Shown here: in pieces, positions 22,397 through 58,571 of the stretch
How the letters are laid out: each line of letters begins with the position of its first letter
How positions within the stretch are numbered: the stretch's first letter is position 1
Translations under genes and position numbers: made by a program
Notes under the pieces: model-generated
Told to the model about the DNA's origin: nothing
Databases searched by the model: none
The model's input: only the letters and a program-made list of their open reading frames with translations
Assembly (NCBI GenBank): GCA_030998015.1
Contig: JARWMV010000241.1
Coordinates: forward strand, 992,001 to 1,056,000
From: Ceratorhiza oryzae-sativae
Lineage: Eukaryota > Basidiomycota > Agaricomycetes > Cantharellales > Ceratobasidiaceae
Reading direction: 5' to 3'
DNA length: 64,000 bases

Positions 22397-22400
22397 TTAC

Positions 22401-22919: not shown

Positions 22920-22930
22920 CTTCCCCCCCA

Positions 22931-28138: not shown

Positions 28139-28657
28139 TGTCAGAGCTACAACCTGAACAGTAACATCAAACACCTAAGTGGTGATGACAAGCCTATGGG
28201 CAGTGATGCCAGAGGCTTTACTGACAATGTCTAAGGTAGGACGTGCAGTGAAGGTGTGATAAGATGCAAGGATGTATGAGTAAGTGCACTTGTCCTTAAG
28301 AGGACTGGGCAGGGACTATGGACTGGTAGGTCACACAGGTAGTAGAGGGGATATGACAGGAGGTTGAGTTCTGAGGCTTAAGGCTCTCAGACTCTCCCTT
28401 ATATATTCATACAATGAGCTATATCAAATACACATATGGTGCAAGACAACTATTGTACAATGTAAGAATGGTGCCATGTAACAGAATATTCCAGAAGGTA
28501 CAAACAGAACATAAACAACAACAAGGTCATGTGATCATGTAAGTAATTCTATGCATATATCCGATTAAACAGGACTTGTCCAAAAATATGAAAAGGAGAG
28601 ATTTATAAAATATACAAAAATCATAATAAAATCTGTGTCATGGTCTAGGCCATGACA
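28139..28657 (-). repeat. 5' LTR of chromovirus A
   Basis: 519 bp, same termini, followed by TSD TTTAC at 28658-28662. On the minus strand the internal region starts TTAGGTTGAG right after it, where a primer-binding site is expected; I cannot assign the tRNA. Confidence 0.95.
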
Positions 28658-36389: not shown

Positions 36390-36781
36390 CTTGACGCTGC
36401 AAAGCTCTGGCTATGTTCAAACCGCCACAATATGGGTATATATACCCAGAGGTGTCGCCCTGCCTTCTATCAGAGGTATGCATATATTGTTTTTTGGACT
36501 CATTTGCAGCTCATGATGTAACTGCAATTGTTGTCAATGTGATTTGCTCTAATTTGCGGTCACCAGAGCATGCATACACCTGGCCTTTGCAACCTTGTTT
36601 ACTGCCTGAGTTGTCCTAAGGGTTGAACCAGCCACAAGTGTGTTCGAACCATGGGGCTCATGTGACAGGGCCTTAGTGAGCCCCATACAAACCCACTGGA
36701 TTCAACCTGGTTGGTGAATCTATCTTGCAACTGCCTTATTGCTCATATCACACATCTACACACATGTTTTGATACCTTCCA
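36390..36781. other. Flank of chromovirus B; no gene seen
   Basis: Contains short frames only (for example 36413-36619). The last five bases, TTCCA (36777-36781), are the left target-site duplication of chromovirus B. Confidence 0.5.
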
Positions 36782-37544
36782 TGTTATGACCCGCCTAGCA
36801 GACATAACCTAACAACCAAATATTGTACAGATTTATGGCATTTTTCCCGAAGCGGAACAAACCATAAACAGGATCACGTGATCTTGGCGCTTACCCAACG
36901 ATTAAGCGCCGGTGGTTACCCTGAACTCGCTCCAGCATTTCTCTCCCATGTTACCTGGAGCGAGGAGTGAGTTGTCACGTGACCTCGGCACTTACCCAAC
37001 AATTAAGCGCTGGTGGTTACCCTGAACTCGCTCCAGCATTTCTCTCCCATGTTACTTGGAGTGAGGAGCGAGTTGTCACATGACCTTGGTGCTTACTCAG
37101 CGATCAAGTGCCGGTGGTTACCCTGAACTCACTCCAGCATTTCTCTCCCATGTTACTTGGAGCGAGGAGCAAGTTGTCACGTGACCTTGGCGCTTATCCA
37201 GCGATTAAGCGCCGGGTGCTTAAGTCCAAAAGTCACATGACCCTGGACCTCGCGCGGCTCTATAAGATTCGGAGCCGCACAAACTTAAGACAAACAATTA
37301 CCTAACCCATAGTACTAGAACCATAACTGCTATGACGGCTTAGAATACACCGCAGCACCGCAGCCACAGGTATATAAGGAGGATAAAGCAAGACTGGATG
37401 CCTCAGCTTGCTTTATCTTGTCAACCACCATAGACCATAGCAAACACTGTAACTAGAACACTCAATACATACTGCATAGCACCAAACCGTCAACGCAGCC
37501 ACTACTTAAGTGCTCCACAAGGGAGCCTCCAGAGGGTCACAACA
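36782..37544 (+). repeat. 5' LTR of chromovirus B
   Basis: 763 bp, TGTTATGACC...CACAACA. Three 101-bp tandem units run from 36875 to 37183; each starts at CACGTG (CACATG in one) and contains an ACTCGCTCC/GGAGCGAG inverted pair. A TATATAAG box lies at 37371-37378. Confidence 0.93.
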
Positions 37545-37665
37545 TTATAAAGCAAGCTCTTAACTTAACTAGTGGCGAACATAAGTATACTACACAGATA
37601 CTAAGGGCTGAGTACACGAGAAAACCAGCTAACTCCTGTGATACATAAGAGAACATAAAGAAACT

Positions 37666-39498
37666 ATGTCACAGAGACCACAAACTCGATCTCAAAGCAG
37701 AGTGGCAAATAGTAGGCCACAATCACCCAAACCCATTGCTTCCCCAGAGGCTGAAGGTAACCCAGATGAGACCCTCCAAGGAATGCCAGGGGGGTTGCCA
37801 CAAAACCCACGACCAGTGGCTCAACCCAACCCCACTTGGGCCCCCATCCTGGGAGGGGAAATAGGGGGAATACCACTCCGCAGCCCTCAACCGCCAATTC
37901 ACCTGATAAATCCAGACCCAGAAGATATCTCAAATCCAGAGAGGGATGAGGTAGAAGATATGACCCAAACCATATATGAACAAGGCACGGCCTTGGCGGA
38001 AGAGGCAAGGACACAACCCCAGCCAGGTCCGGGAGCCATAGCCACTGCCAACCCTATTCACACCATTGCCAGCCATCAGGGGGGGCTCAAGGAACTTAGA
38101 GACAATAATCATAGGGAACTAGAAAAGGCAATCACGGGTATAAATCAGTGTCAAATATCACTAACCCGACAAGAAGGAAACGTGGACTGGATGGTAAGGT
38201 CAATGGAAACATCCAACAAAAATGTCCTCTATGTGGCAAAGAACCAGGACGACCTAAAAGCAGAAATGGGGAACCTGATAAAAGAATTAAAGGACATCTC
38301 CATGGAAATAAACCGGGTACTGGGAATGCAAGAGCGAAAGCTCGAAAGCTTAGAGAAGAAAACCAAAAACACAGGGGAGATCCTAATCGCACTAGAACAA
38401 CAGGTAACCGATCTAGGAAATGAGCTCCGGAAAACAACTGAAGCAGGAAGGCCAAGGGAAAGGACAGAAGAAACCAGGGGAAGAACTAGGGTGGTCATAG
38501 GAAGCCCCTCACGATCCCCCTCAGCCTCCCCAGTACGAACACCCTTTCTGGGAAGAACCTTCCAGGCTGAGTCCACAATAAGACCCCAAACAGAACCTCC
38601 ATCCCAAGCAAACCAACCTACCCTTGCTGCAAACCACACTCCTAAGGAGGCAAGACTAGGGAGACCCAGCAAATTTAATGGGAAAAAGGGGAAGGAAGCA
38701 GAGAACTTCATAATCAGCATGGAACTTTTCTTTGCTGACTATGACGAATCAGCCTTTGATGACCGAAAAAAGATATCTGCTGTGCTAATGAACATGGAGG
38801 AAGGGGAAGCAGCAAACTGGGCACAACCTTACCACCGGAAACTACTAGCAGGTGAACACACAGGTATTCTTGCATCCTGGAAAGATTTCAGGAAGGGATT
38901 CCTGGATGCTTTTAATGACCCAGTCATAAAGGAAAAGACCATCCGGAAACTAAGGAAATTAACACAGACCAAGAGTGCATTGGATTATGCTACCCAATTC
39001 CGGATCCTGATCCAAGAGGTAGACTGGAACCAGGAAGCCCTCAAGGACCAATTCAGGGAAGGTTTAAAACCCAAAGTACGACAAGAGATCCTAAGGATTG
39101 AAGTACTGGCAAATGAGGCTGAAGGTCCATCGTATACCTTAGATCAATTAATTGACTTTGCCTGCAAAATGGATGACATGCAGTTTGCAAACCAGAAAAT
39201 GAATACAAGGACCAGCAACTCATCAAATTCAACCTGGGCACCAGCAAAATACAAACAAGGGGGGAACAAGCCTTTAGGGACCAGTGGCAAACAGGGGAAT
39301 ACCCAAACCAACAACATGGTAAGGATACCAAACAGTGAAAAGGACAGGCGAAGGAAAGAAGGACTCTGTATCAAATGCGGTAAATCAGGGCATGTCCTGA
39401 AGGAGTGCCGAGGCCAGTGGACCTACGACAAAGCTAAGGTACAAGGGAAGGCCAGCAGACAAGTTGAGGAAGAAAGCAGCTCTGAGTCGGAAAACTAA
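37666..39498 (+). CDS. Gag of chromovirus B
   Basis: 610 codons, intact. The order is a Pro/Gln/Arg-rich N-terminus, a predicted coiled coil (about residues 165-265, rich in Lys/Glu/Leu heptads), the Gag core from about residue 330 (RPSKFNGKKGKEAENFI ... ASWKDFRKGFLDAFNDP ... LRKLTQTKSALDYATQF) and one zinc knuckle CIKCGKSGHVLKEC near residue 567. An acidic Glu/Ser tail precedes TAA. Pol begins 17 nt later in another frame, so it needs reinitiation or a shift. It encodes the structural protein of the virus-like particle. Confidence 0.92.
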   Translation: MSQRPQTRSQSRVANSRPQSPKPIASPEAEGNPDETLQGMPGGLPQNPRPVAQPNPTWAPILGGEIGGIPLRSPQPPIHLINPDPEDISNPERDEVEDMTQTIYEQGTALAEEARTQPQPGPGAIATANPIHTIASHQGGLKELRDNNHRELEKAITGINQCQISLTRQEGNVDWMVRSMETSNKNVLYVAKNQDDLKAEMGNLIKELKDISMEINRVLGMQERKLESLEKKTKNTGEILIALEQQVTDLGNELRKTTEAGRPRERTEETRGRTRVVIGSPSRSPSASPVRTPFLGRTFQAESTIRPQTEPPSQANQPTLAANHTPKEARLGRPSKFNGKKGKEAENFIISMELFFADYDESAFDDRKKISAVLMNMEEGEAANWAQPYHRKLLAGEHTGILASWKDFRKGFLDAFNDPVIKEKTIRKLRKLTQTKSALDYATQFRILIQEVDWNQEALKDQFREGLKPKVRQEILRIEVLANEAEGPSYTLDQLIDFACKMDDMQFANQKMNTRTSNSSNSTWAPAKYKQGGNKPLGTSGKQGNTQTNNMVRIPNSEKDRRRKEGLCIKCGKSGHVLKECRGQWTYDKAKVQGKASRQVEEESSSESEN

Positions 39499-39515
39499 TT
39501 GGTCCTACCACTTCC

Positions 39516-41432
39516 ATGTTGGAGGACCCCAATATAACCCCTACCGCAGATGTATGTTACCTCAAGAAGTCTAGTAATCAATCAATAATATACACTATGG
39601 TAGAGGGAATCATGGAACCAGCTAAGACGCTGATTGACTCAGGATCTTCAACCAACTTCATCGATAAGGCCTATTCAAGGGAAAAAGGGATTCCAACCAC
39701 TCCCCTCAAACACAAGAAATCAATTGTGGCCATTGATGGAAATGAAATCAAGGATGCCATAGAAGAAAGGGCAGAACTAAACAAAGTGGAAGGGAAGACA
39801 CTAAAATGCTCCCTTTATGTAATGACCCTAGGTGACACAGACATAGTCCTAGGGAAAGAATGGCTTGAAGAAGCAGAACCTATCATAGATTGGAAAGACC
39901 TTACCATCTCATACCCAGACGAAATCAAGGCAAGGGCAGCAAGTGAAAGCCTACAAATCCCAGAAGAATTTAGGGATTTTGAAGACCTATTTGGGGAAGA
40001 AGGTTTCCGAGAACTTCCACCCCACCGAGGTAACCTAGACTTCAAAATGGACCTGATCGAGGGAGCGGAGCTGCCAAAGCCTGCAAAGAGGTACAGTATG
40101 TCGCCAGCAGAAACAAAGGCGCTCAGGGAGTACCTAGAGGAGGAACTAAGAAACGGGAAAATAAGGCCCAGCCAGTCAGTTGTAGCTGCACCCTGTTTCT
40201 ATGTGAACAAAGCAGATGGAGGGCTTAGGTTGGTAGTCGACTACCGTAAGATGAATGACATCACCAAGCCAGACAGGTTTCCACTTCCAATCCAAATAGA
40301 ATTGATTGAGAGACTGAAGGATGCAACCATCTATTCAAAAATGGATGTTCGATGGGGGTTCAACAACATCAGGGTAAAAGAGGGAGACGAATGGAAAACA
40401 GCTTTCAGGACAGGAGAAGGCCAGTTTGAATGCTTGGTCATGCCATTCGGAGTAAAAGAAGGACCAAGAACCTTTACCAGGTTCATGATGGAAAAGTTCC
40501 GTGATATAATAGACGATTATGTGGTAATCTACATGGACGATGTACTAGTGTTTTCCAGAAACAGGGAAGAACACGTACAACATGTCAGGGAAGTGTTAAG
40601 AAGAATGAGGGAAAACCACCTCTTCCTCAAACCACACAAGTGTCAGTTCTTTGTGAAGGAGGTAAGCTTCATTGGAATTGTCATATCCCCAGAAGGGATA
40701 TCGATGGAAAAGGAAAAGGTAAAGGCAGTTCTAGAATGGCCAGAACCTAACACAGTAAAAGAAGTCCAAGCCTTCCTAGGCTTCGTGGGGTTCTATAGAA
40801 GGTGGATAGAGAAGTTTAGTACCTTAGCCAAACCCCTCACAGATCTCACCCAAAAAGATGTCAAATTCCTGTGGGAAAGAAAACAACAGGAAGCATTTGA
40901 AGCTATCAAAGAAGCAGTAGCAAGAGAACCGGTCCTGATCCACCCAAACCCAAACAGGCCATACATACTGGAAACAGACGCCTCAGGAGTGGCCATGGGG
41001 GCGGTACTAAGCCAAAAGGGTGATGACAACCGATTGCATCCAATTGCCTTCCTATCGAAGAGCTTCACCCCACCAGAGAAAAATTATGACACCTACGACA
41101 AGGAGTTGCTTGCAATTGTTAGGTCCTTAGAGCACTGGAGGTTATACTTAGAAGGGACAGAGGAACCTATTGTGATATACACTGACCATAGGAACCTCCA
41201 GTACTGGCAAAATGCCCAGATGTGGAATAGAAGGCATGCCAGATGGTATCTCACTCTGGCACCCTTCAATTTTCAGATTGTGTATAGACCAGGGAAACTC
41301 TCACAGAAGCCAGATGCCCTTTCCAGAAGGAGACCATGGGGATACCCCTATGGAACCACAGATCATGATTCCAGAAGAAAGGTTCATAGGTTTCATGGCA
41401 GAAGTACAGGGGAATTTCTGGGAAGAGCTTAA
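39516..41432 (+). CDS. Pol part 1 of chromovirus B: protease, reverse transcriptase, RNase H
   Basis: 638 codons. Protease motif LIDSGSSTNF near residue 41; RT fingers/palm with VVDYRKMNDITK, LVMPFGVKEGP and the catalytic VIYMDDVLVF near residue 339; RNase H with LETDASGVAMGAVL, YDTYDKELLAIV and IYTDHRNL. RNase H ends at PDALSRR (about 41327), after which this frame drifts into unrelated residues and stops at 41432. The integrase frame takes over from about 41331 in a different register, so one extra base, or a programmed shift, lies there. Catalytic residues look complete. Confidence 0.92.
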   Translation: MLEDPNITPTADVCYLKKSSNQSIIYTMVEGIMEPAKTLIDSGSSTNFIDKAYSREKGIPTTPLKHKKSIVAIDGNEIKDAIEERAELNKVEGKTLKCSLYVMTLGDTDIVLGKEWLEEAEPIIDWKDLTISYPDEIKARAASESLQIPEEFRDFEDLFGEEGFRELPPHRGNLDFKMDLIEGAELPKPAKRYSMSPAETKALREYLEEELRNGKIRPSQSVVAAPCFYVNKADGGLRLVVDYRKMNDITKPDRFPLPIQIELIERLKDATIYSKMDVRWGFNNIRVKEGDEWKTAFRTGEGQFECLVMPFGVKEGPRTFTRFMMEKFRDIIDDYVVIYMDDVLVFSRNREEHVQHVREVLRRMRENHLFLKPHKCQFFVKEVSFIGIVISPEGISMEKEKVKAVLEWPEPNTVKEVQAFLGFVGFYRRWIEKFSTLAKPLTDLTQKDVKFLWERKQQEAFEAIKEAVAREPVLIHPNPNRPYILETDASGVAMGAVLSQKGDDNRLHPIAFLSKSFTPPEKNYDTYDKELLAIVRSLEHWRLYLEGTEEPIVIYTDHRNLQYWQNAQMWNRRHARWYLTLAPFNFQIVYRPGKLSQKPDALSRRRPWGYPYGTTDHDSRRKVHRFHGRSTGEFLGRA

Positions 41433-42924
41433 AGAAGCTCAGGAAGAAGACGAATCTATCAGATCCTTAAGGCTGAGTGTGGCAAATAAAGAACAACTAC
41501 CGCCCTCAGTACAGAAGGAGTTTAGACGGTATGAAATGAAGGAGGGCCTATTAAGGTATGACGATAGGCTCTACATCCCAGATGACAAGGACTTGAGGTT
41601 GAGTCTCCTTGAGGAGTGCCATGACGCCCCAGTGGCAGGTCATCAGGGACAAGCCCGAACACTAGAATTACTATCAAGGGATTACTATTGGCCAGGAATG
41701 AAGGCCCAAGTAAACCGATACGTGGAATCTTGTGAAACATGTCAAAGAAGCAAAGGACACAAACAAGGCACTCCCCTGAAGTCCTTACCAATCCCATGGA
41801 AACCATGGGCAGATGTCGCATATGATTTCATTGTCAAATTACCTGTCTCAAAGGGGTACGATAGTATCTTGACAGTTGTAGATCGCTTCTCCCGGCAGGC
41901 CCATTTTGTACCATGTCTGGAGAGCACCAATGCAGAAGAACTGGCAGAAATATTCATAAGGGAAGTATGGAGACATCACGGGACCCCAGAAACCACTGTC
42001 TCAGACCAAGGGCCAACCTTTAACAGCCAATTCCTAAAAGCCCTATACAAAGGAATTGGGACAAAGCCCAGATTCTCCACTGCTTTCCATCCAGAAACAG
42101 ATGGTCTGTCGGAAAGGACAAATCAATGGGTAGAAGGGTTCTTAAGAACCTTCTGCAATTATAGACAAGATGATTGGGTAAAATGGTTACCCATTGCCGA
42201 ATTCTGCCATAACAACCACGTAAATGCTACAACAGGACAAACCCCATTTGAAACAGTATATGGAAAAAACCCAAGATGGGTTGTCCGAGAGGGAGAAGAA
42301 CCATCTGAGGCACCTGCTGCAGACAACATGCGTAATCAAATGGAAAAGGTATGGGATGAGGCAAGAGCCTCAATGGAATTACACCAACAAATGGAAAAGA
42401 AAGGGAGGGAATTCAAGGTAGGAGACAAGGTTTGGCTGCTCCTAACAAACCTCTCGTCCAAGAGACCCTCCAAGAAACTGGACAACCGAAAAGGGGGGCC
42501 CTTTGAAATCACAGAAAAGATCTCATCCCATGCATATCGCCTGGACCTACCTAAAACCATACGTGTACACAATGTATTCCATGTAAATCTCCTCTCGCCA
42601 TTCACAGAAGATAAAGACTTCCAAAGAAGGCAGGCCAAACCACCACCAATCATAACGGAAAAAGGAGAGGAGGAATACGAGGTGGACCACATTGCAAATT
42701 ATGAATGGCGGAATGGCGAGCTGTTTTACCAAATCAGATGGAAGGGCTACGACCCAATAGAAGACACAATGGAACGTGCCAGCAAGTTTGCTGACATGAA
42801 AGAGGTTCTAAATGACTTGCAAAGGCACTTACCAGACGCACCAATGCCAGTCAAGACAAGTCAGCACTCAGGTGACTTGAAAGGCAGGCCAAAGAGAACC
42901 AAACGAGGATCTGGAAAGCTTTAA
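41331..42924 (+). CDS. Pol part 2 of chromovirus B: integrase with chromodomain
   Basis: The frame is open from 41212, but homologous sequence starts around 41331 (GDHGDTPMEPQ). It has the His/Cys finger (HDAPVAGHQGQARTLELLSR ... CETCQRS, 41620-41745), the catalytic core with D in VAYDFIVKL, D in TVSDQGPTF and E in GLSERTNQW, and a C-terminal chromodomain (about 42675-42840, YEVDHIANYEWRNGELFYQI, then RWKGYDPIEDTMERAS), which targets integration to marked chromatin. It ends with a basic tail RPKRTKRGSGKL at TAA 42922-42924. It has no start of its own, so it is either fused to part 1 by a +1 shift or disabled. Confidence 0.92.
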
Positions 42925-43113
42925 AAGGAGCCATCCAGGATACCCAAGAAAGGCCAGAGTCCACTCTACCACCACACTTGCACCACAACACATAAACCCA
43001 ATTTCACTATGCCTTTCACCACTCGCCCTGCGTTTCCCTCAGGCCACTTTGCGCCCCTGGTTAATAATCAGGTCGCCCACGTCCGGTTGGTGCCCACCAC
43101 AAGACGGCCGGCT

Positions 43114-43415
43114 TGTAGAAATCATATTTGTACATACACGAATATTATACATATAGTTAGTGCTAGAACAATCGTATGCGTGAATGCACCGGAAAGCCAT
43201 GGAACAAGGACGCGCATGCGTTCTATACCATTCTACACTATTTGCACATACAGGCTCTATCGTGTATAAAAGGGGCGCCTTCGGCCTCGTAGCTAGTCAC
43301 CCATTGAATATATACTTTTCACCGGTAAATCACACACACGCCTTCGGCGTCGTCTTAAGCACACTGCGCACCGAGTACATATATTGTATTCGTGGTTATA
43401 TACATAGTTTCTATA
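43114..43415 (+). repeat. 5' LTR of the copia element
   Basis: 302 bp, TGTAGAAATC...TTTCTATA, with a TATAAAA box at 43265-43271. Confidence 0.95.
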
Positions 43416-43579
43416 GGTTATGAGCCCCGAGCTCATCGCTTAAGACCAGAAGTACACCGCGTGATCACCCCAGAGCGAAGCACATAGGCCCCGCAACGAC
43501 AGAGACGTCATACAGTGACCTCAGAGCCCAGAACAAACGAGTAAGACTCACCGCGTGATAGTAAGAGCTCAACACCGAC

Positions 43580-46500
43580 ATGTCTGACATGAACACAAGC
43601 TCCGGCACATCCGTTTATCGGATTACTCCACTGCATGGCACGGAGAACTTTAGCACATGGCGCATACAGATGGAAGATATCCTCACCGACCTAGGCCTAT
43701 TCGAATACGTGAACGGAACGAACCCGTTTCCCCCATACAACGTCAACAAGGTTCCAGACCCGAAAGCAGTAGGTTCAGATGGAAAGCCCAACCCCAACGG
43801 AACGAAAGACGAAGTCAGCACAACAATGAATAAGAACCAGGAGAAATGGATCAAGGAAGATCGGAAGGCACTCTCACAGATAAGATTACGCGTAGATGCT
43901 CATGCACTAACGCATATACAGAGCTGCAACTATAGTAGAGAAGCATGGAGTCTACTAACAAACACTTTCCAGGTACAGGGAACCATAGGCTTAATCGACT
44001 TACGTAGAAAGTTCTTCAGTCATCGCATGACTGACGGAGAAGACGTCGAAGAACATTTGCGCAAAATGCACGATTGGTTTCAACAAATCAACATTATATC
44101 GCCCAATGCAATAACTGAAGTCGATTGGATCACAACATTAGTAGCTAGTTTGCCCGATTCATGGGATTCATTCACACAATCTGTAGATTTTAACTTCGAT
44201 CTTAAGAATATAAACCTACTTAGTGCGAAGGTAGCTAACCTTCGATCCCGCATTTTAGCCGAAGCACACAGAAGAAACACTCGAAGCGATAACGGTAAGA
44301 CCTTCTATAGTAATAACAGACCCAATTTTAGCAGTAGCACTCGGAGTTTCAACCCAACAAAGAACCCCTCACGCACTCCAGACAAATCGCAAACGAAGTG
44401 CAACAATTGCGGAAGAACGGGACATTGGGCAAAGGAATGTCGTCAGCCTGGCGGAGGCGCATACAAGCAGGGAAACAACAAACCACAGTTCAGGAACCCT
44501 GGCAAGAACTCATTCAACCGGTTCATGAGTCCAAACAATAAGCGTAACAATGCACGCGCTCACGCTGCGATCGACACAGAAGAAGCCCCTATTCAGCGAA
44601 ATGACAGCTTCTCCTTCTCAGCCTTCGATGACAAAATCCGATTTTGGAGCCGGCCCGGTAACCAATGGATTGCCGATAGCGGCACAACCACCCATATCGC
44701 ACATGACCAATCACTCTTTGAGGATTATTGAAATGCACAAGGTACAGTCACAGGAGTTAGTGGCAAGAATACAATCATAGGAAGAGGTAACATTACCCTT
44801 TGCTGTAAGAACCCGGCAACAAATGAGTATAAAACAATAACCTTGAAAGATGTTGCACACGTACCTTCATGTCCTACTAATCTAATCAGCTTATCTCTAG
44901 TTACCGATCATGGATTAGGCATTCGGATGAATGCGAAGAACTTACAAATCTTATCCCCGGATGGAAATACCATCGCAGTAGGCGAGAAATCCACAGATCA
45001 AAGCAAGGGGAACCCCTGGCAGTTATTGTGCGATGCCGTGTACCCATCTAAGCGCATACAGTCGGATACCAAGAATAACCAAACTGAGACAGTACTCACC
45101 AAGGTAAGCGGACGTACTTGGTACGATTGGCACAGGATTTTGGGCCATATCGGCGCCCAAGCGCTCCAGAAAATACAGACAATGGGAGCGATAACAGGCA
45201 TGGAAGTATCAGAAGGTAAAGAAGGTTTAGACTTCCAGTGCGAATCATGCATACAAGCGAAGATGTCAGTTAGGCCTTTTCCGAAAGAATCGAAGACTAA
45301 TATCACAAATATAGGCCAATTGATAGTTACTGATGTCTGGGGTCCTGCGTGTATACCTTCTATCGGAAAATACTTGTATTATGTATCTTTTACCGATGTA
45401 TCTACAAGATTTTCTACTGTAGCTTTTCTTAGGCAGAAAGACGAGACTCTGGATGAATACAAAGCATTTGAATCATTTTTACTAACACAGAAGAATGCTA
45501 AGGTTTTGAAGGTTCGATTCGACAACGGAGGAGAATTTGTTAATCAAAGCTGGAAAGCGCATACATCGAAAGCGGGTACCGTCCTGGAAACGACTGCTCC
45601 ATACTCAAGCCAGCAGAATGGAATAGCTGAAAGGCTAAATCGCACGCTTTTGGAACATGCTCGTGCAATGATGTTCGAGAGTGACACACCAAAGTTCCTT
45701 TGGAGCGAAGCGGTCGCATATGCATGCTACCTGAAGAACAGAGTACCTACCCAAGTACATGGAGTCTTTCAACTGACTCCATATGAGCGATTTTGGGGGA
45801 CAAAGCCCGACGTTAGCCTGCTAAGGCCTTGGGGATCGAAATGCTATGTACTGGATCAGGCAGTAAATCGATCTAAACTTGACCCCAAAGCTTTCAAAGC
45901 AGTATTTACAGGAATTTCAGATGTACAAGGCAAGTCCTGGCGATACTACAAGCCCGGCGCAATGAAGATTCTTCACTCGCGCAATGTGGCGTTCCTCCGA
46001 GATGACGATACAATGACGAACGATGGAGACGAAGTGCTCATTCCAATCGCTCCGCCTGCTGAGGGGGAGATTAAGAAAATTTCGGAAGATTCCAGCAAGC
46101 CAGAGCAATTGAAACGACAGCCTGGGACAGGGGGAGAGCTAAAGCCTATAAAAGCGAAGCTCAAAGACGAGACAGAGTCACCAGTGACTCCAATTTTATT
46201 CGATTCAACCAAGTCTACTACTACTGTAACATCTCCCACCGTTTCATCTCTACTTGAACCACTTGCGACTTCATCTACAACGCATACAACCTCCTCTCAA
46301 CCGTCTAAAGCAGTACGTACACTGTTAAAATCGTCTAAGTCCTCCGGCGCTAACTCTGGTGCTAAACCACAAGGACCATCGCAACCTCCAGCAATGTCGA
46401 AACCAGGCGCTACTATTCAGACCCGCTCTGCCCGAGTTGGTCAGCCAATTATGCGACTTGAATCTACTTGTGGCGCACCCAAGATCACTGTCATGGACGA

Positions 46501-48391
46501 TAAAGGTAATCTACCAATTGCTGCGCATACAGGCGAGCAACTGACAGATGATACAGTTGGCGAAGACGCTGAAATGGCCAATGTCTGTGTCGACAACCCC
46601 TACGCCAACATGCCGTCTCTCGAGCCTATCTACAAGATCAAGTATAGACCTGATGTACCACCTCTTGTGCCGATCACAGTGGATCAACTTGCTCGCCCAC
46701 AAGAATCCTACTTGGCGACTCTCAAGGCCAAGGAGAACGCCTTCATGAGCGCGTTCTACGAAGGGTTCATACACCAGTCTTTCATGACTCGCACCGACCC
46801 CGATGGCGACAATCCTTCCTACAAGGATGCGATGAACGGACCCGAACGCAACAGGTGGATCCAGGCGATGCAGGAAGAGTACGATCAACTTGTCCGAATG
46901 AAGACCTTTGAACTTGCCAGTCCGCCCGTCAACAAGAATGTCATTCAGAACAAATGGGTACTCACTTGCAAGCGTGACGAGAACGGCAACATCGCACGCT
47001 ACAAGGCACGGCTCGTGGCGAAGGGATTCACTCAAATCCCTGGTCAAGACTTTTACGACACTTTCGCCCCCATTGCCCACCTTGATTCGTTGCGTATTAT
47101 GTGTTCTCTCGCTAATTGGTATGATCTTGATATTCACCAACTCGATGTCGTTTCAGCTTTCCTTAATGGCGAACTCGACGAAGAACTATACATGCGCCAG
47201 ATCCCTGGCTTCGACGATGGCTTAGGTACTGTGCTACGTTTGAGGCGATCTTTGTATGGACTGAAACAGGCTGGACATGTATGGAATAAATATCTGGATG
47301 CGAAGTTGAAATCTTTAGGCTACACACGACTTTTGACAGATTCTTGTGTCTACCGGCGCATTCGCCATGATCGTGATGGCTATTATCTTTTTTCCTTTTT
47401 AGCAGTACACGTCGACGACTGTATTCTCATGACAACTCCTTCTCACACGTACGATGCGATCAACAAGCTGCGCCAAGAGTTTGATATGCGTGACCTAGGC
47501 GAACTGCAACATTTTATTGGCATACAGTTCACTCGAGATCGAGCCAACCGCACGCTCACGCTCTCTCAATCCGCATACATTCTCAATATCGTCGACAAGG
47601 CTGGCATGCTAGGCGCTTACCTGGCCGACACCCCTGCGTCGACTTCTACACAACTCGAGCACAACACCGGTCCGAAACCCAACTACCCTTATGCCCGAAA
47701 CATCGGCCGTCTCATGTACGCTGCTATCTGTACTCGTGCCGATATTGCTTACATCGTCAATCACCTCGCGTCGTTCACTACGTGCTACAGGCAACCTCAC
47801 ATCACGGCGCTTAAACAAGTTATTCGATACCTCGCTGGTACCGTCAATCACGGACTCGTTTATCAGCAAAACCCTCAAGATCTATTGAGCGATGTAATCG
47901 GCGAAGTTGGCTACTCGGACGCCGATTGGGGATCAAGCCTACTCGATCGCAAATCGATATCCAGCAACTGTTTCCTTTTAGGTGGCACTGCAGTCAGCTG
48001 GTCGTCGAAGAAGCAACACACCGTTGCTCTCTCTACGATGGAAGCTGAGTACATGGCTCTCGCTCATGCCTCTACTCAAGCTCTTTGGATCCGTCAATTC
48101 TTCGACGAGATCAGCATGCCATCGGAATCTCCCACTCTTATTTTGTCCGACAACCTCGCTGCACTTACTCTATCGGTCGAATCCCAGTACCGTGGTCGAT
48201 CGAAACATATCGACATTCGTCACCACTTCATTTGTGACTGCGTCGAAAAGCGTTTGTTATCTCCTATGTATGTTAACACAAAGGATAACTACGCTGACGC
48301 CCTTACCAAGCCACTCCTGGCGAACCAATTTCATACTTTGATGGAAGGGATTATGGGCGAACAGGAAGAACGTGATATTGAAATCATTTGA
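43580..48391 (+). pseudogene. Copia Gag-Pol polyprotein, one in-frame stop
   Basis: A single frame of about 1,600 codons interrupted only by TGA at 44729-44731. Gag (43580 onward) has a UBN2-type core (YSREAWSLLTNTFQVQG) and zinc knuckle CNNCGRTGHWAKEC (about 44401). The protease motif IADSGTTTHIAH (about 44670) lies just before the stop. Then come the integrase finger (HRILGHIGAQ ... CESCIQAKM), the core (TDVWGPA, RFDNGGEF, NGIAERLNRT), RT (KARLVAKGFTQIPGQDF, VVSAFLNGELDEELYMRQ, VHVDDCILM) and RNase H (SDADWGSSLLDRKS, ALSTMEAEYMAL, SKHIDIRHHF). Because the stop cuts the protease, the copy is probably non-autonomous unless it is read through. Confidence 0.93.
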
Positions 48392-48527
48392 GTAGCATAT
48401 ATACAATTTAAATAGCTGTAGTGTCTGAAAACGGAATCGTTATGTTTGTGAATTGTTTTGTAATTCTGTTTTGTCCGAATCTAGTTTGATTTCTTTACTC
48501 TCTTACGAGCATACGATTGAGGGGGAG

Positions 48528-48829
48528 TGTAGAAATCATATTTGTACATACATGAATATTATACATATAGTTAGTGCTAGAACAATCGTATGCGTGAATG
48601 CACCGGAAAGCCATGGAACAAGGACGCGCATGCGTTCTATACCATTCTACACTATTTGCGCATACAGGCTCTATTGTGTATAAAAGGGGCGCCTTCGGCC
48701 TCGTAGCTAGTCACCCATTGAATATATACTTTTCACCGGTAAATCACACACACGCCTTTGGCGTCATCTTAAGCACACTGCGCACCGAGTACATATATTG
48801 TATTCGTGGTTATATACATAGATTCTATA
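48528..48829 (+). repeat. 3' LTR of the copia element
   Basis: 302 bp; six differences from the 5' LTR: five C/T or G/A changes at CpG and one T/A change near the end. Confidence 0.95.
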
Positions 48830-49599
48830 CGGCTCCCTACCCAGGCAAGGAAAACTGCAAGAAGCCAGGCCAGTACACCCCAAGTGTGGAGGAACACCGA
48901 ATGATTGCGGAGAGCTTACTGCCAGGGGCCAACTTGGTGTACATCCCAAAGAAGGATAGGGACGCGAGGAACTGGCTTAACAACAGCCTTTACAAGGACC
49001 CCAAGTTAGGAATACTGCGGTGGCAGGGAGTCCGAAGGCCGACAACCAAGAGCGCAATGTTGCGCACACCAATGTATGTAATCGACAACATAGTGGGGGC
49101 AACGGTGACAGGGGTGGTCTACGCCGCCAAGGAACAGAGGGAGGTGGTGGGCCTCTGGACGACTAATGCAGATTGGGAAGTAGAGCAGCGGGCCAGGGTC
49201 CTGTTGGAGCAGTGGAAGCTGGCACTGGCGGCACCGTATGGGGACTGCTTGAGGCCACTACCACTGATGAAATGTTTACTGCCATCAGGTTGAAGGAAGC
49301 AAACTTGGCCGACTTCCGTAACTGGGTGAAGGTATGCCCAAACCTGCATGGTTACGATACGGATATGTCGAGCCTCACGGCAAGCCTGGAGTCCCTGGTG
49401 GTGAAGGAGGAGGAGCCGAGAGTAACGATAAAGGAACCAACCCCGGACCTGGCCCAAGAGGGAGTCCAAACGGATTGGGCCAAATGGGAGGATGAGCTGG
49501 CGGGTGCCTTGGAGGAAGTGCCCCTGCTGGACACAGAGCCCTTGTGACTATCAGGCCTATCACATGTTTTTTGGAATGTCTTAAGAATAATTTTCACTA

Positions 49600-50171
49600 T
49601 CATATAATAATACATTTCAAAATGTTTTCTATTTTTTCTTGCCCTTGAGGGGCCGGGCATAGGGTTTTTTTTGCCTTCTTATCCTTCCTAGTAGTACGGG
49701 CCGCAGAACCACTGGCCCGGTTCTCAGGCAACAGCCAGGGGGCCTCCCCCCCTGGGAAGTCGGCCATGTAGTTCTGGAAACACCCAGAACCAGACGCTGC
49801 AAAGGGCGAAGCCTCATCAAACAAGGGAGCAGAGCCCTCCTTGAAGAATTTGGCAAGAGCAGCCTGGTGAGACTGCTCCTCAAAGGACTTGTAGTCCTGA
49901 TCAACGAGCGCCCAGACACGCTCAAGGGTGGCCTCATGGGCCCAACCATCAAGGAGGATGCACTCTTCTACAGAACAAGTTAGCTACATGAGAACAACGA
50001 AGAACAAACACATGTACCTGGCACCCCACAGAAGAACCAGTCCCCAACACCCCCATAGAAGTCCTCGAGGGAGGTGTCGCACACGGCATCACAGTAGGCG
50101 CAGTACCCCCCCTCAGGGAGAGACCAGCAGGTGCAGTCAAGGGGATTGTAGTTAAGGGAAATAACACGCAT
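49600..50171 (-). CDS. Cargo ORF 2 of chromovirus B, antisense unknown protein with one intron
   Basis: The start at 50169-50171 opens MRVISLNYNPLDCTCWSLPE, followed by a Cys-rich stretch (CAYCDAVCDTSLEDFYGG). An intron of about 50 nt (about 49970-50019, GTACATG...TGTAG) joins it to ECILLDGWAHEATLERVWAL, DQDYKSFEEQSHQAALAKFF and a C-terminal basic tail (RTTRKDKKAKK), ending at TGA/TAA near 49600. No family is recognised. CWSLPEGGYCAYC could be a metal site. The ORF is convergent with cargo ORF 1 (53 bp apart) and divergent from the Rep gene, an order like that of circular ssDNA viruses with genes on both strands. The correct splice and open frame suggest it was recently functional. Confidence 0.5.
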
Positions 50172-50286
50172 AGTAAAGACGGGATGAGGAAGGAAAACAA
50201 CAAAACCACAAACATTAAAAATCACGGTGCAACACAATAACTTGCACAAACATCAAAACAAGGTCTGGTCAGGTGACACCAACAGA

Positions 50287-50414
50287 CACGTGACCACCTG
50301 CCAGAAAACAAACAACAAAGCACGGGAATCACATGACCTAGCCTAGTCATGTGACCACCTGCCAGAAAACAAACAACAAAGCACAGGAATCACATGACCT
50401 AGCCTAGTCACGTG
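50287..50414. repeat. 61-bp direct repeats in the divergent intergenic region (iteron-like)
   Basis: Two tandem 61-bp units start at CACGTG 50287 and CATGTG 50348, and a third CACGTG at 50409 closes the array. The units differ by two changes, both at CpG. Right behind it a small hairpin can form: CCCCT 50427-50431 and AGGGG 50441-50445 around a 9-nt loop. The array lies between antisense ORF 2 and the Rep gene, the position where circular ssDNA viruses keep iterons and the replication origin. The loop does not match the usual TAATATTAC-type nonanucleotide. Confidence 0.6.
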
Positions 50415-50627
50415 AATATACACTATCCCCTAACTACCGGAGGGGTCAGAGAGGGGGCACCGACTGAAGTGGGGGAGCGGAGGCCCCGAGCGTAGCAAGG
50501 ATCAAGGCCGACGCAGAGGAACGGATGGGAGGGCACCCCTCGGAGATGCGTCATCACTGAAATAAGGTCATGTGATCACAACAAATGCAAGACGGAGTCA
50601 TGTGACAATCAAAACGGACCTTGCGGC

Positions 50628-50635
50628 TTATATAG
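50628..50635 (+). promoter_or_regulatory. TATA-like box before the Rep gene
   Basis: TTATATAG lies about 40 bp before the first possible ATG (50669) and about 80 bp before the ATG of the Rep frame (50712). Two ATCACATG/GTCATGTG-type boxes lie further upstream. Confidence 0.4.
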
Positions 50636-50711
50636 ACAAGCACAAGGCCCAAGATAACCTGCGCTCTCATGCTCTCTTCCCAGTCCCCAAATACCTCTAA
50701 AACTGTAAACG

Positions 50712-51998
50712 ATGCTAAGTGGAAATGGATCGAACGCGGCAACACCCCAGCCAAGCGGATCAAGCGAAGGGCGGAGGTTGGTGTCGCCATTGCCAGTGCC
50801 CTTGGTATCAAGCCAAGCCCCCTCGCCTGCTTCTATGCGGCCTACACTGACGGATCGAGGGTCCGAAGAGCTGACTGAAACCGCGCTGGCCCCTCGGTTC
50901 TGTGTCCAGACCAGGGCAGTGCTGCTGACCTGGTCGAAGCTACGCGATCAGCCCTCAAGTGGGCTCGTCACCCGATACAAGGTGTTCTGCTGCCAACGGC
51001 CAAATCATTGGGCGACTTTGGCGGTGGTGGAACACCACAACCCTGAGGAACCAAACTACAACCTGGCCCGGCCCCTCCATGTCCACGCCCTCTCCATCAG
51101 TCAGGAGCAGAAGGGCGGCTGGAACACCCAGAACACCCAGTTCTGGGACTTCGAGGGGCAACACCCCAACATCCTGCCGAAGGACCTCAAGGACGGACCA
51201 GGAGGCAACCCTGCAAGGGAGGCTTTCAACTACCTCTGGAAGGATGTCGGAGCTAACGGCGAGGAGGTAGAGGAGCTGATGGCGGGGGACCTGACCTTGG
51301 AAAGGTTGGAGGAAATCCTGGTGAAGGGAAAGGGCAGGAAAAGGTCAAGGGCAGATGCGGACCTGGAGGACGGGGCGGAGATTGTTGCCTTGGTGACAAA
51401 AAAAGAGTACTACCAGGCATTCAAGCGCCTGCGCCCCCTCCAGATGGTGACGACATGGAACTCGGTACGAGCATATGCTGAGTACACGTATAAGGAGGAC
51501 CAGGGATGCATGCCTGCAATCCCGGTGGAGTTGGAAGTCCCAGAAGACCAGGCGCACATCGACAGGGCGGACTGATGGTTCGCGGAAGAGGCTGAGAAGA
51601 GAGGGAGGGGCGTGCGCCATCGCATCCTGGTGATCGAAGGCGAAACAGGAACTGGGAAGACAGCGTATGCGCGATCCAAGGGCTCCCATAGCTGGATGTG
51701 CAACGTCTGGAACGTGGGGAATCTGTCGGAGGACGCTGACATCTGGATCCTGGATGACATGGTCCAGTCAAACGGGAAGTACTCGCTCAAAGCCCTGAGC
51801 CAGTACGAGGCAGACTTCACAGGCAGATATGCTCATGTGAAGTCAATGAAGGTATGGCCAACGGTGATCCTGGGGAATAGCCGGTCGGCCATAATGAAGT
51901 GTTGGACAGACATAGAGGGGGAAGAAGGGGACTTATGGGTATCCAAAAACGTAGACTGGGTATACTCAGGAGGGAAGCCATTTTTTGTTTTTCCTTAA
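50712..51998 (+). pseudogene. CRESS-DNA-virus-like Rep (HUH endonuclease plus superfamily 3 helicase), one in-frame stop
   Basis: Replication-initiator-like protein most similar in layout to geminivirus/genomovirus Rep. Counting from ATG 50712: motif I LLTWSKL (71-77), motif II HVH (123-125, metal-binding), an HPNI block as in the geminiviral GRS region (151-154), motif III YLWK (174-177, nicking Tyr), then Walker A GETGTGKT (310-317), Walker B IWILDD (344-349) and motif C VILGN (385-389). A TGA at 51573-51575 separates the nuclease from the helicase half; both halves share one frame, and an intron removing the stop cannot be excluded. The residues before about 60 may not be real; an overlapping frame opens at ATG 50669. 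A likely polyadenylation signal AATAAA is at 52001. It lies inside an LTR retrotransposon, which is highly unusual. Endogenous Rep-like genes are known from fungal genomes in general. Confidence 0.85.
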
Positions 51999-52201: not shown

Positions 52202-52295
52202 TCCTTGATATATGAGATACCTTTTAGAAACTTTTAGAACCCAGAAAAGAAACATGCCTCGAGATCCCCCAAGACATGTCCAAAGGGGGGGATAA

Positions 52296-53075
52296 TGTTA
52301 TGACCTGCCTAGCAGACATAACCTAACAACCGAATATTGTACAGATTTATGGCATTTTTCCCAAAGCAGAACAAACCATAAACAGGATCATGTGACCTTG
52401 GCGCTTACCCAACAATTAAGCACTGGTGGTTACCCTGAACTCGCTCCAGCATTTCTCTCCCATGTTACTTGGAGCAAGGAGCAAGTTGTCACGTGACCTT
52501 GGTGCTTACTCAGCAATCAAGCGCCGGTGGTTACCCTGAACTTGCTCCAGCATTTCTCTCCCATGTTACTTGGAGCGAGGAGCGAGTTGTCACGTGACCT
52601 CGGCGCTTACTCAGCGATCAAGCGCCGGTGGTTACCCTGAACTCGCTCCAGCATTTCTCTCCCATGTTACTTGGAGCGAGGAGCAAGTTGTCACGTGACC
52701 TTGGCGCTTATCCAGCAATTAAGCGCCAGGTGCTTAAGTCCAAAAGTCACATGACCCTCGGACCTCGTGCAGCTCTATAAGATTCAGAGCTGCACAAACT
52801 TAGGATAAACAATTACCTAAGACCTAGTACTATATAGAACCTATAACTGCTATAGACGGCGCTTAGGAAAGGGGGGCCACCACAGCAACCACAGTCACAT
52901 GTATATAAGGGGAGTAAAGCAAGACTGAACACCTCAGCTTGCTTTATCTTGTCAACCACCATAGACCATAGCAAACACTGTAACTAGAATGCTCAATACA
53001 TACTGCATAGCACCAAACCGTCAATGCAGCCACTACTTAAGTGCTCCACAAGGGAGCCTCCAGAGGGTCATGACA
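52296..53075 (+). repeat. 3' LTR of chromovirus B
   Basis: 780 bp, same ends; it also has three 101-bp units (CATGTG 52389, CACGTG 52490, 52591, 52692). It differs from the 5' LTR mainly by C/T and G/A changes at CpG sites plus small indels near the TATA region. Confidence 0.93.
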
Positions 53076-53743
53076 TTCCATGGTTATGGTGAATCAGAGC
53101 CCGGTCATGGGTCCCACAGACACATAATAACACGTGTATATGGGTTTGCGGCACCATGAGCTGGTTGGGACAGCCTGGTCTAAATGACTGATCTCAGCCT
53201 ATTTTGGCTAGAGTCCCATCAAACATGACCTTGAGGCCAGAACTATGGCCCCGTCAGTTGCACTTCCATTCCTGATGAGTGCAAGTGATATAGCTTCCTG
53301 ATTACTATTGCTCCCATCAAACATGTCCTTGAGGCTGGAACTACAGCCCTGCAAGCTGCACTTCCATTGCTGATGAGCGCAAGTGGCATATAGCTATGTG
53401 ATTACTATTGTTCGGACCACCCAAACGTGTTTGCTCAGCTACATGATTGCATTACGGGGATCATGTTTGGCTCATTTACATGAATCATGTGACAAACACT
53501 GTGCCACACACCCTCCACCACCAACTACGTCTTCACCTGTTTCATCCTTACCTTATAAAGCCCAAAAGCCGCAATTATGCCAACCCACCAGTCAAAAACG
53601 CCTACCAGAAGATTTGCTCCTTTCAACTTAAAGCAGTCTGTTCATACTGCTGCGCAACAACTTTGCCGATTAAACATTTTTACAGCACATGAAGAGAGGC
53701 AAGTACCACATTACTAGTGCCCATGTTGATCTTTGCACTGAAA
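53076..53743. other. Spacer between chromovirus B and a solo LTR, with a ~97-bp direct duplication
   Basis: Starts with TSD TTCCA. About 53215-53305 and 53311-53405 are diverged direct copies (both contain CATCAAACATG and GCACTTCCATT). No gene is recognised; the frame at 53383-53692 has no motif. Confidence 0.5.
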
Positions 53744-57229: not shown

Positions 57230-58571
57230 ATGTTCATATAATGTCGAGAATCCGGGGCTATGAGTTCCTGTGTTGACTCTATGGCAAGATAATGATTGGA
57301 GAAATTTTTGGCTGTCCCATTTGATTTGACAATTTGTACCTGGATGCTCATGCTGGGTAAACACCAGCTAGTCTGCTCATTTCCTGGACAATTTATCTAA
57401 AAAAAAATATGCCAGGCATCTTTTAAACACCATAAGAGTATGTTTTCAGAGTTTCAGCAAGTTGGGATGCACTATTAGAAAGTTATAGGCTGTTGAAGAT
57501 GCTAGGTTTGCATGCTCTCCCACCCCTTGTTTCACAGTGATTTAGGCAGTTCATCTAATACAAATGACATTAAGACATTCAATGGTCATTTATAAGCTCT
57601 AAATGCATGACTGAAACCAGCTAAGAGGCACATACAGGAGTGGAAGTAGCTGGGATACATTTCCATGCATACACCCAATGGAATAAACCAGTCATGCTGA
57701 GGGCAGGAGTTCAGCTGGAAGTCTAAAAGCTACATGGATTATAGCACCCCTGGGAGGGAATCTTCAATCTAAGTTTCAAGGGGACAGGGCAAAGACAAGG
57801 AAAGTTACTGACCATGCAGTACAAAAATTGGACTTTTTGATCAGATTTACTATGAGATTGGAGACAATTTGCACTGCATGGTCTGTAACTTTCCTTGTCT
57901 TTGCCCTGTCCCCTTGAAACTTAGATTGAAGATTCCCTCCCAGGGGTGCTATAATCCATGTAGCTTTTAGACTTCCAGCTAAACTCCTGCCCTCAGCATG
58001 ACTGGTTTATTCCATTGGGTGTATGCATGGAAATGTATCCCAGCTACTTCCACTCCTGTATGTGCCTCTTAGCTGGTTTCAGTCATGCATTTAGAGCTTA
58101 TAAATGACCATTGAATGTCTTAATGTCATTTGTATTAGATGAACTGCCTAAATCACTGTGAAACAAGGGGTGGGAGAGCATGCAAACCTAGCATCTTCAA
58201 CAGCCTATAACTTTCTAATAGTGCATCCCAACTTGCTGAAACTCTGAAAACATACTCTTATGGTGTTTAAAAGATGCCTGGCATATTTTTTTTTAGATAA
58301 ATTGTCCAGGAAATGAGCAGACTAGCTGGTGTTTACCCAGCATGAGCATCCAGGTACAAAATGTCAAATCAAATGGGACAGCCAAAAATTTCTCCAATCA
58401 TTATCTTGCCATAGAGTCAAGCTGTTGTCCTGAAATTTTGCCAGGGAAATCATATGGCATATAGCTATATATTCCACCAACACATGTGTCTGATATTGTC
58501 TATCCTTCATCTTTTACAGTTGATTCTCTGTCAGATGGTCACATGTCCCATTTGATTTGTTGCCCACTGTA
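57230..58571 (-). repeat. Split second copy of the 14720-14917 repeat
   Basis: 57230-57272 and 58421-58571 match the two halves of 14720-14917 in reverse orientation. The material in between is the palindrome. Confidence 0.8.
57273..58420. repeat. 1,148-bp near-perfect palindrome (foldback insertion)
   Basis: Arms of 548 bp (57273-57820 and 57873-58420) are reverse complements with only a few substitutions and no indels, since mirror positions stay in register; the spacer is 52 bp. Ends are TTGACTCTATGG and its complement. No ORF is meaningful. It is inserted in a repeat whose uninterrupted version is at 14720-14917. A foldback/MITE-like DNA transposon or a head-to-head duplicated element are the main options. 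Confidence 0.85.

What the first reader, a model, noticed from the sequence alone, without database searches (positions are those of the whole stretch)
50712..51998. Rolling-circle Rep of the CRESS-DNA-virus type carried inside a Ty3 retrotransposon
The frame has all Rep hallmarks in the right order (LLTWSKL, HVH, HPNI, YLWK, Walker A, Walker B, motif C), yet lies between the chromodomain-integrase gene and the 3' LTR of an element closed by one TSD pair (TTCCA). Either a retrotransposon captured a DNA-virus replication gene and amplifies it, or a virus genome integrated into a resident retrotransposon. Both are unusual, and the first would be a new kind of mobile element. The nuclease and helicase halves are now parted by a TGA.
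Basis: partly seen in the sequence, partly recalled or inferred. Interest (0 to 1): 0.93.

Follow-up and report, generated by a model that had tools for sequence, protein, structure and literature searches.

The report
Retrotransposon carrying a virus-like replication gene
In this fungal genome a common copy-and-paste element, which multiplies through RNA, also carries a kept-in-shape gene that resembles the replication gene of small single-stranded DNA viruses, so it may combine two ways of multiplying that are normally separate.

Summary
The Rep-like gene is not a single insertion: it lies between pol and the 3' LTR in 30 of 30 other copies read. Of 71 listed pol ends, 65 have a listed LTR junction within 20 kb, none closer than 2.67 kb, so no empty element was seen. 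Five copies have different TSDs, four exact, one 4 of 5 bases. Rep is one of three genes in a 3.6-kb module: gene 1 (+), gene 2 (minus strand, with an intron) and Rep (+). All show in-frame purifying selection; dN/dS is 0.24 for the nuclease half and 0.07-0.08 for the helicase half, 0.8-1.5 in shifted Rep frames. Rep identity rests on motif order and a sub-threshold geminivirus central-domain match; catalytic-domain profiles, PDB and two poor structure models did not confirm it. Relatives with a named organism are all Ceratobasidium. No NANTATTAC origin was found. Most likely, though inferred, Rep acts on the element's own extrachromosomal DNA. The nearest published case seen is Rep in rotifer Terminons, which are Penelope-like.

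The parts
36777..36781 (.). 5' target-site duplication TTCCA
   Evidence: read next to LTR start TG at 36782
36782..37544 (+). 5' LTR of the Ty3 element
   Evidence: repeat of the 3' LTR, 701 of 763 aligned bases identical
37642..39498 (+). gag
   Evidence: Pfam Retrotrans_gag 9.2e-13, Ty3_capsid 3.5e-10
39486..41432 (+). pol: protease, reverse transcriptase, RNase H
   Evidence: Pfam RVP_2 3.1e-08, RVT_1 1.1e-33, RT_RNaseH 3.1e-36
41176..42924 (+). pol: integrase and chromodomain
   Evidence: Pfam Integrase_H2C2 2.8e-23; rve 7.5e-07 (below its cut-off); Chromo 1.2e-05
43009..43113 (+). cargo gene 1, part before the nested Copia
   Evidence: in-frame dN/dS 0.27 v 1.00 and 0.66 in shifted frames
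43114..48829 (+). nested Copia element, TSD CGGCT at 43109-43113 and 48830-48834; not part of the cargo
   Evidence: Pfam Retrotran_gag_2 7.3e-29, RVT_2 1.3e-58, rve 2e-10; LTR pair 98% over 300 bases; flanks read; no match to it of 120 bases or more in the 20 copies
48835..49547 (+). cargo gene 1, remainder (frame broken in this copy)
   Evidence: one long open frame in several copies; dN/dS 0.19 and 0.29 in frame
49600..49967 (-). cargo gene 2, exon 2
   Evidence: dN/dS 0.24 (0.16 for its 5' part), shifted frames 1.2-1.5
49968..50017 (-). intron of gene 2, GTA..GCTAAC..CTGTAG
   Evidence: 5' splice site, branch-like site and 3' splice site in 28 of 28 aligned rows, window included; exon frames join
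50018..50171 (-). cargo gene 2, exon 1
   Evidence: dN/dS 0.24 in frame, shifted 0.97 and 1.60
50172..50708 (.). intergenic region between gene 2 and Rep: 61-bp tandem repeat, CAYRTGAYC motifs, hairpin site 50329-50354, TATATA at 50629-50634 before Rep
   Evidence: left half 92-100% alike in the divergent copies shown; no NANTATTAC
50712..51575 (+). Rep-like gene, nuclease half (motif I, HVH, HPNI, YLWK), ends at TGA 51573-51575
51576..51998 (+). Rep-like gene, SF3-helicase-like half (Walker A, B, motif C)
52281..52294 (+). polypurine tract before the 3' LTR
   Evidence: CCAAAGGGGGGGAT in 30 of 30 other copies read, before the LTR start
52296..53075 (+). 3' LTR
   Evidence: ends at the same alignment position, in ACA, in the window and in 29 of 30 other copies (L030 runs out before it), with unlike flanks
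53076..53080 (.). 3' target-site duplication TTCCA

Best explanation
An autonomous Ty3/Gypsy chromovirus family, with over a hundred copies in this fungus, carries as a standing part of its genome a three-gene module between pol and the 3' LTR. One gene is a Rep-like protein: an HUH-type nuclease motif set followed by an SF3-type helicase motif set. Shown: position, copy number, mobility as one unit, selection on all three genes, reshuffling of module blocks between copies, and a minus-strand gene that keeps its intron, as expected if the module passes through the element's plus-strand RNA. Inferred: the module was captured from a geminivirus- or genomovirus-like replicon of a fungus, and Rep acts on the element's own extrachromosomal DNA (unintegrated or circular cDNA), nicking and copying or resolving it, so that copy number rises by a DNA route as well as by reverse transcription. 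My odds: cargo 0.97, real Rep homologue 0.85, this mechanism 0.45.
For: The nuclease half matches 40 scored places in the own genome, the window itself and 39 others at 93-96% identity (172 candidates). 20 of 20 fetched Rep copies show pol-module-LTR. 10 of 10 copies chosen because they lacked the Rep 35-mer nearby still carry the module, main pieces 77-93% identical. Pattern counts: pol end 131, module intergenic 35-mer 143, PPT-LTR junction 153; 65 of 71 listed pol ends have a listed junction within 20 kb, none under 2.67 kb. Distinct TSDs TTCCA, CTCAC, GACAG, ATCAA, and CGCCG/CGCCA with 4 of 5 bases alike. dN/dS Rep 0.24 and 0.07-0.08, gene 1 0.19-0.29, gene 2 0.16-0.24; shifted frames of these genes 0.66-1.64. 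Y175, K178, three P-loop positions, DD and N390 invariant in 9 of 9 selected full-length or nearly full-length relatives, H126 in 8 of 9. Gemini_AL1_M match in 8 of 24 and 6 of 35 members (overlapping sets), best 0.001, over nearly the whole domain and in the expected place. Rep and gene 1 have long uninterrupted frames in several copies; minus-strand gene 2 has an intron.
Against: No curated profile is passed: Gemini_AL1 0.23 in 1 of 24 and in 0 of 35 at E up to 10; Gemini_AL1_M below its cut-off; nSTAND3 scores about as well, 0.0014. PDB profile searches empty or chance. Both structure models poor, pLDDT 39 and 49, so fold searches say nothing. No NANTATTAC in any of 28 aligned module rows; a hairpin site is in 28 of 28 rows but its 9-bp stem is perfect in only 5, so no origin is identified. 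No viral relative was found; whether the viral collection holds CRESS genomes was not established. No transcript or circle data. Only 8 of 30 copies have both Rep halves open. Some listed places do not pair up: 13 of 70 pol ends without a listed module 35-mer, 14 of 80 module 35-mers without a listed LTR junction (lists capped at 100).
Confidence: 0.55

Rival explanations
1. Rep is kept for another task: as a silencer or competitor of ssDNA mycoviruses or of sister elements, or as a host-factor manipulator as geminivirus Reps are, not for copying the element's DNA.
For: Selection keeps all three module genes, two of which match no known family as far as scanned; no origin nonanucleotide.
Against: Residues needed for nicking and ATP hydrolysis are kept; a pure interference role would need only binding.
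Confidence: 0.25
2. The module is itself a former or present DNA replicon (CRESS-like plasmid or virus without recognised capsid) that rides in the retrotransposon and may leave it as a circle; the retrotransposon is its vehicle.
For: Two genes diverging from one intergenic region; blocks of the module exchanged between element lineages while pol stays near uniform; some unnamed metagenome relatives carry an intron-like insert in Rep, which suggests a form not passing through this RNA; 14 of 80 listed module 35-mers have no listed LTR junction downstream, unread.
Against: 57 of 70 listed pol ends on contigs 1-231 have an exact module 35-mer close downstream, and the 30 copies read are inside elements. 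No module outside an element was read, but none was sought by position.
Confidence: 0.15
3. The frame is not a CRESS Rep but an unrelated P-loop NTPase with a chance HxH.
For: No catalytic-domain profile match, no confident fold; nSTAND3 and AAA matches of like weakness.
Against: Seven motifs in the Rep order and spacing, none of 200,000 shuffles (expression written afterwards); central-domain match nearly end to end. The strand-helix order of the poor model fits the HUH order as I recall it, of little weight.
Confidence: 0.13
4. A single viral genome integrated into a resident retrotransposon, an endogenous viral element.
For: Only the window copy taken alone.
Against: 30 of 30 other copies read carry it at the same place.
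Confidence: 0.01

Closest known systems
Terminons (giant Penelope-like retroelements of bdelloid rotifers, PMC6431247, passages read)
   Same: Retroelements that carry rolling-circle Rep proteins among accessory genes; the authors write that this may point at circular intermediates.
   Different: Penelope-like, endonuclease-deficient, attached to telomeric repeats, up to 40 kb; here an LTR/Ty3 chromovirus with integrase, TSDs and a 3.6-kb module in a fungus.
Geminivirus-like transposon of Tuber melanosporum (PMC3198968, passages read)
   Different: That element has 37-bp terminal inverted repeats, transposase frames and no obvious TSD; here the vehicle is an LTR retrotransposon and Rep is under selection.
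LTR retrotransposons of bdelloid rotifers with captured ORF3 (PMC5408684, abstract and outline, term search)
   Same: Extra genes in addition to gag and pol of LTR elements, shared in modular fashion.
   Different: The abstract names env-like, GDSL and DEDDy genes; none of the six Rep or rolling-circle terms searched occurs in the text.
Endogenous CRESS Rep sequences in fungi and other eukaryotes (PMC3198968, passages read)
   Same: Fungal Rep-like proteins there contain the geminivirus-like domain.
   Different: Those are described as integrated genes or fragments, several inside host genes or transposons; here Rep is a fixed part of a high-copy family.

Membership tests
Ty3/Gypsy chromovirus | gag, protease, RT, RNase H, integrase and chromodomain in this order | tested here: met
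   (rve match below its cut-off, Integrase_H2C2 and Chromo above)
Ty3/Gypsy chromovirus | LTRs, polypurine tract, 5-bp TSD | tested here: met
   TSD exact in 4 copies, 4 of 5 bases in L024; the L020 pair does not match
Ty3/Gypsy chromovirus | primer-binding site | not tested
   not looked for
CRESS-DNA Rep | RCR motifs I, II, III in order (motifs recalled) | tested here: met
   LLTWSKL, HVH, YLWK in the window; P0001 among 11 of 31 long relatives by expression, 9-member A3 by residue
CRESS-DNA Rep | SF3 helicase motifs Walker A, B, C (motifs recalled) | tested here: met
   tested residues invariant in the 9 of 9 selected relatives
CRESS-DNA Rep | match to a catalytic-domain profile | tested here: inconclusive
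   Gemini_AL1 0.23 in 1 of 24, 0 of 35, none in the own-genome search, where the controls did not ring either
CRESS-DNA Rep | HUH endonuclease fold | tested here: inconclusive
   pLDDT 39 and 49; no meaningful fold match
Geminivirus-like Rep | Gemini_AL1_M central domain | tested here: inconclusive
   best 0.001, 19.5 bits against cut-off 24
CRESS-DNA replicon | stem-loop with NANTATTAC-type nonanucleotide (PMC6186406, passages) | tested here: not met
   NANTATTAC in 0 of 28 aligned module rows; a looser form TANNRTTAC only outside the intergenic region, in 18 of 28 rows
CRESS-DNA virus | capsid gene | tested here: inconclusive
   genes 1 and 2, whole or in part, match nothing better than E 0.3 in Pfam, NCBIfam or PHROGs
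Terminon | Penelope-like RT and telomeric attachment | tested here: not met
   Ty3-type gag, integrase and LTRs
Helitron | Rep joined to a SF1 (Pif1-type) helicase (recalled) | tested here: not met
   no Helitron or Pif1 model listed in the Pfam scans of 24 and 35 relatives

The most novel reading that the evidence does not exclude
A hybrid mobile element with two replication routes: it copies through RNA and integrates by its integrase, and its own Rep multiplies its circular DNA by rolling circle, from a module with its own genes and intergenic control region captured from a ssDNA replicon and exchanged between element lineages.
Probability: 0.35. Interest if true: 0.95.

Novelty: new variant of a known kind. 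Interest (0 to 1): 0.82.

Why it matters
Rep proteins are held to be the hallmark of ssDNA viruses, plasmids and rolling-circle transposons; LTR retrotransposons are held to multiply through RNA. Selection on a Rep-like gene inside an LTR family says the protein is useful to the element, so the two worlds may exchange working replication modules. It also gives a testable system for what becomes of unintegrated retrotransposon DNA circles, and a route by which ssDNA replicon genes become fixed in eukaryote genomes.

Tried and rejected
Single virus insertion: rejected. Empty copies of the family: sought by taking pol ends without a nearby Rep 35-mer; 10 of 10 read had a diverged module, and the listed junction distances show none. 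The gap between 131 pol ends and 61 Rep 35-mers is therefore, at least in the ten read, divergence and not emptiness. An empty copy whose junction or pol end fell outside the capped lists would have been missed.

Profile and fold proof of Rep: single-sequence Pfam, PHROGs and PDB, PDB profiles with A1, A3, A4, two AlphaFold2 jobs, Foldseek on PDB and viral libraries and VIA-align: no row named as a Rep among those listed, but the models are too poor to count. Family searches of the own genome with PF00799 (nothing, controls silent) and PF08283 (three weak hits, best 0.508); one of these, C242:160346, was read (L062): its open frames show nothing Rep-like to the eye and I take that hit as chance; the other two were not read. 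tblastn on plasmids and phages gave nothing of use. A viral-contig scan with P0012 found no relative; a motif scan returned 23 stretches, on contigs of 8,140 bases or longer, none pursued.

A pol-end row used the wrong frame and is withdrawn; one search has the right frame (0.41).

Copies dropped before counts: searches (stop count; intron, hairpin) used 27 of 30 copies plus the window (L013, L016, L030 left out, having insertions or adjoining copies). Searches used only the listed places (100 per pattern, exact matches) on contigs 1-231 and 1-232. The pairing of 5' and 3' LTRs is by distance; the stretch between was not wholly read.

Full report
WHAT IS THERE. The window lies in a 48.8-Mb assembly of 253 contigs. 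The best protein relatives are from Ceratobasidium species, so the host is probably a fungus of or near that family; the record itself is unnamed. Between TTCCA (36777-36781) and TTCCA (53076-53080) lies one LTR element with gag, protease, reverse transcriptase, RNase H, integrase and chromodomain: a Ty3 chromovirus. Its 3' part holds 3.6 kb between pol and the polypurine tract, interrupted in this copy by a nested Copia element (43114-48829, TSD CGGCT; Pfam Retrotran_gag_2 7.3e-29, RVT_2 1.3e-58). The finding's frame is the last gene of that stretch, in two open halves parted by TGA.

TRUE CARGO. A DNA search of the own genome with the nuclease half gives 40 scored places out of 172 candidates: the window and 39 others at 93-96% identity. 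Twenty of the 39 were fetched with flanks; 20 of 20 have the order pol, module, 3' LTR. As a harder test I took ten pol ends with no Rep 35-mer nearby; 10 of 10 still carry the module, main pieces 77-93% identical. Genome-wide pattern counts with up to three mismatches are pol end 131, Rep P-loop 35-mer 61, module intergenic 35-mer 143, polypurine-LTR junction 153, with reversed-pattern controls at 0. Of 71 listed pol ends, 65 have a listed junction within 20 kb; distances cluster at 3.6-3.9 kb and the smallest is 2,673 bases, so no element without the module is seen among them. The lists are capped at 100 and pairing is not complete: on contigs 1-231, 57 of 70 pol ends have a listed module 35-mer downstream, 66 of 80 module 35-mers a listed junction, and 76 of 93 junctions a listed module or pol end upstream. 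In 29 of 30 other copies the 3' LTR end could be read and falls at the same alignment position, with unlike flanking DNA. TSD pairs read: TTCCA (window), CTCAC (L021), GACAG (L025), ATCAA (L013), and CGCCG/CGCCA (L024, 4 of 5 bases); the pair at L020 does not match. The gene therefore moves with the element, in independent insertions.

THREE GENES UNDER SELECTION. Gene 1 (+) starts just after pol and is one long open frame in several copies. Gene 2 is on the minus strand with an intron of 50 bases in the window; a 5' splice site GTANNT, a branch-like GCTRAC and a 3' splice site are found in 28 of 28 aligned rows. Rep (+) follows, after a 0.5-kb intergenic region with a TATA-like site. Nei-Gojobori ratios over all pairs: gene 1 0.27, 0.19 and 0.29 in three parts; gene 2 0.24 and 0.24; Rep nuclease half 0.24, helicase half 0.065; shifted frames of these genes 0.66-1.64; noncoding stretches 0.62-0.86; pol end 0.41, its shifted frames 0.55 and 0.62 (28 rows). 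With all 30 copies and the window the Rep values are 0.237 and 0.082; for pairs with dS above 0.15 they are 0.211 and 0.072, with dS up to 1.47, and for pairs with dS up to 0.1 they are 0.401 and 0.249. Pairs of copies are not independent, so the ratios describe direction and size, not a test with a p value. Eight of 30 copies have both Rep halves in one open frame; the window's TGA is shared by 3 of 27 other aligned copies, so that small lineage seems to have spread with the stop in place.

INTRON ASYMMETRY. A gene read in the sense of the element's RNA cannot keep a spliced intron through reverse transcription, whereas an antisense gene can; that is the logic of antisense-intron retrotransposition reporters (established knowledge, recalled). 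Rep and gene 1 have long uninterrupted frames and gene 2 keeps its intron: what RNA-mediated transmission predicts. Some unnamed metagenome relatives of Rep (P0027, P0028, P0036, P0047, P0050) carry an intron-like insert at one place; if real, these forms may not travel by RNA. I could not read their DNA.

MOSAICS. In the seven copies shown against L025, identity changes in blocks: pol 92-100%, start of gene 1 85-100%, end of gene 1 55-71% in six of seven (L029 99-100%), left intergenic part 92-100%, second half of Rep 79-93%, 3' untranslated part 64-73%. Copy L029 is near identical up to the first part of Rep and then belongs to the other lineage. Template switching between co-packaged RNAs is the simplest cause (inference). 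Two deep lineages of Rep thus share one pol background, and both keep their coding sense.

IS IT A REP. For: ordered motifs, none of 200,000 shuffles matching (expression written afterwards; it matches 11 of 31 relatives of 350 aa or more); tyrosine, lysine, P-loop, DD and motif-C residues invariant in 9 of 9 selected relatives and the second histidine in 8 of 9; Gemini_AL1_M in 8 of 24 and 6 of 35 members of overlapping sets, best 0.001 over profile positions 11-106 of 107 in P0012. Against: that match is below the curated cut-off; nSTAND3, a P-loop model, scores about as well (0.0014); the catalytic-domain model Gemini_AL1 appears once at 0.23 in 24 members and not in 35; no Rep in the PDB by sequence, no usable fold. 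Relatives in 5.8 billion proteins: 57, 23 and 91 in three searches; those with a named organism are all Ceratobasidium, annotated hypothetical, several with intact lengths of 427-429 aa; the rest are unnamed, mostly metagenomic. So the family is old in that group but its link to viral Reps is remote.

HOW IT MAY WORK. Unintegrated LTR-element DNA often forms circles (recalled). A nuclease-helicase with kept catalytic residues, made from an element that also makes such DNA, most simply acts on it. The expected NANTATTAC origin is absent. A hairpin site TCACATGAC-CTAGCCTA-GTCATGTGA at 50329-50354 is found in 28 of 28 rows, but its stem is perfect in only 5. The motif CAYRTGAYC occurs 50 times in the window against 5.65 expected, six in each LTR of the element and six in the intergenic region, but it is also in other repeats and may bind a host factor. 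Steps shown: presence, mobility, selection. Steps inferred: nicking, substrate, benefit.

WHAT IS KNOWN. Terminons in rotifers carry Rep among accessory genes (PMC6431247, passages); a Tuber transposon with inverted repeats carries a geminivirus-like Rep (PMC3198968, passages); rotifer LTR elements capture other ORF3 types and their text holds none of the six Rep terms searched (PMC5408684, abstract, outline and term search). In ten full-text searches of an open-access library no listed title or abstract start reports an LTR retrotransposon with Rep; subscription papers and preprints were not searched, and the listed papers other than those named (and the outline of PMC6338049) were not read.

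VERDICT. Observation confirmed; cargo reading supported; a new variant of retroelement-Rep association, of high interest, with mechanism open.

Noticed in passing
36782-37544 and 52296-53075: The two LTRs of the window element are only 91.9% identical although its pol is about 97-100% identical to other copies and its ends share a TSD; later gene conversion of one half would explain it, untested.
   Followed up: partly
L029-L038: Pol is far less diverged than the module in the same copies: a recent spread of one pol over old module variants, or constraint.
   Followed up: partly
57273-58420: Near-perfect inverted repeat, arms of 553 bases 99% complementary, 42 bases apart.
   Followed up: no
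22398-28435: Direct repeat pair of 300 bases, 97% identical and 5.7 kb apart, probably the LTRs of another element.
   Followed up: no
whole window: Motif CAYRTGAYC is about ninefold enriched, 50 against 5.65 expected, in LTRs, the intergenic region and some other repeats.
   Followed up: partly
P0027, P0028, P0036, P0047, P0050: Intron-like insert at one place in Rep of metagenome relatives, absent from the retrotransposon copies in that alignment.
   Followed up: no
43114-48829: Copia element nested in cargo gene 1, TSD CGGCT, LTRs about 98% identical over 300 bases.
   Followed up: partly
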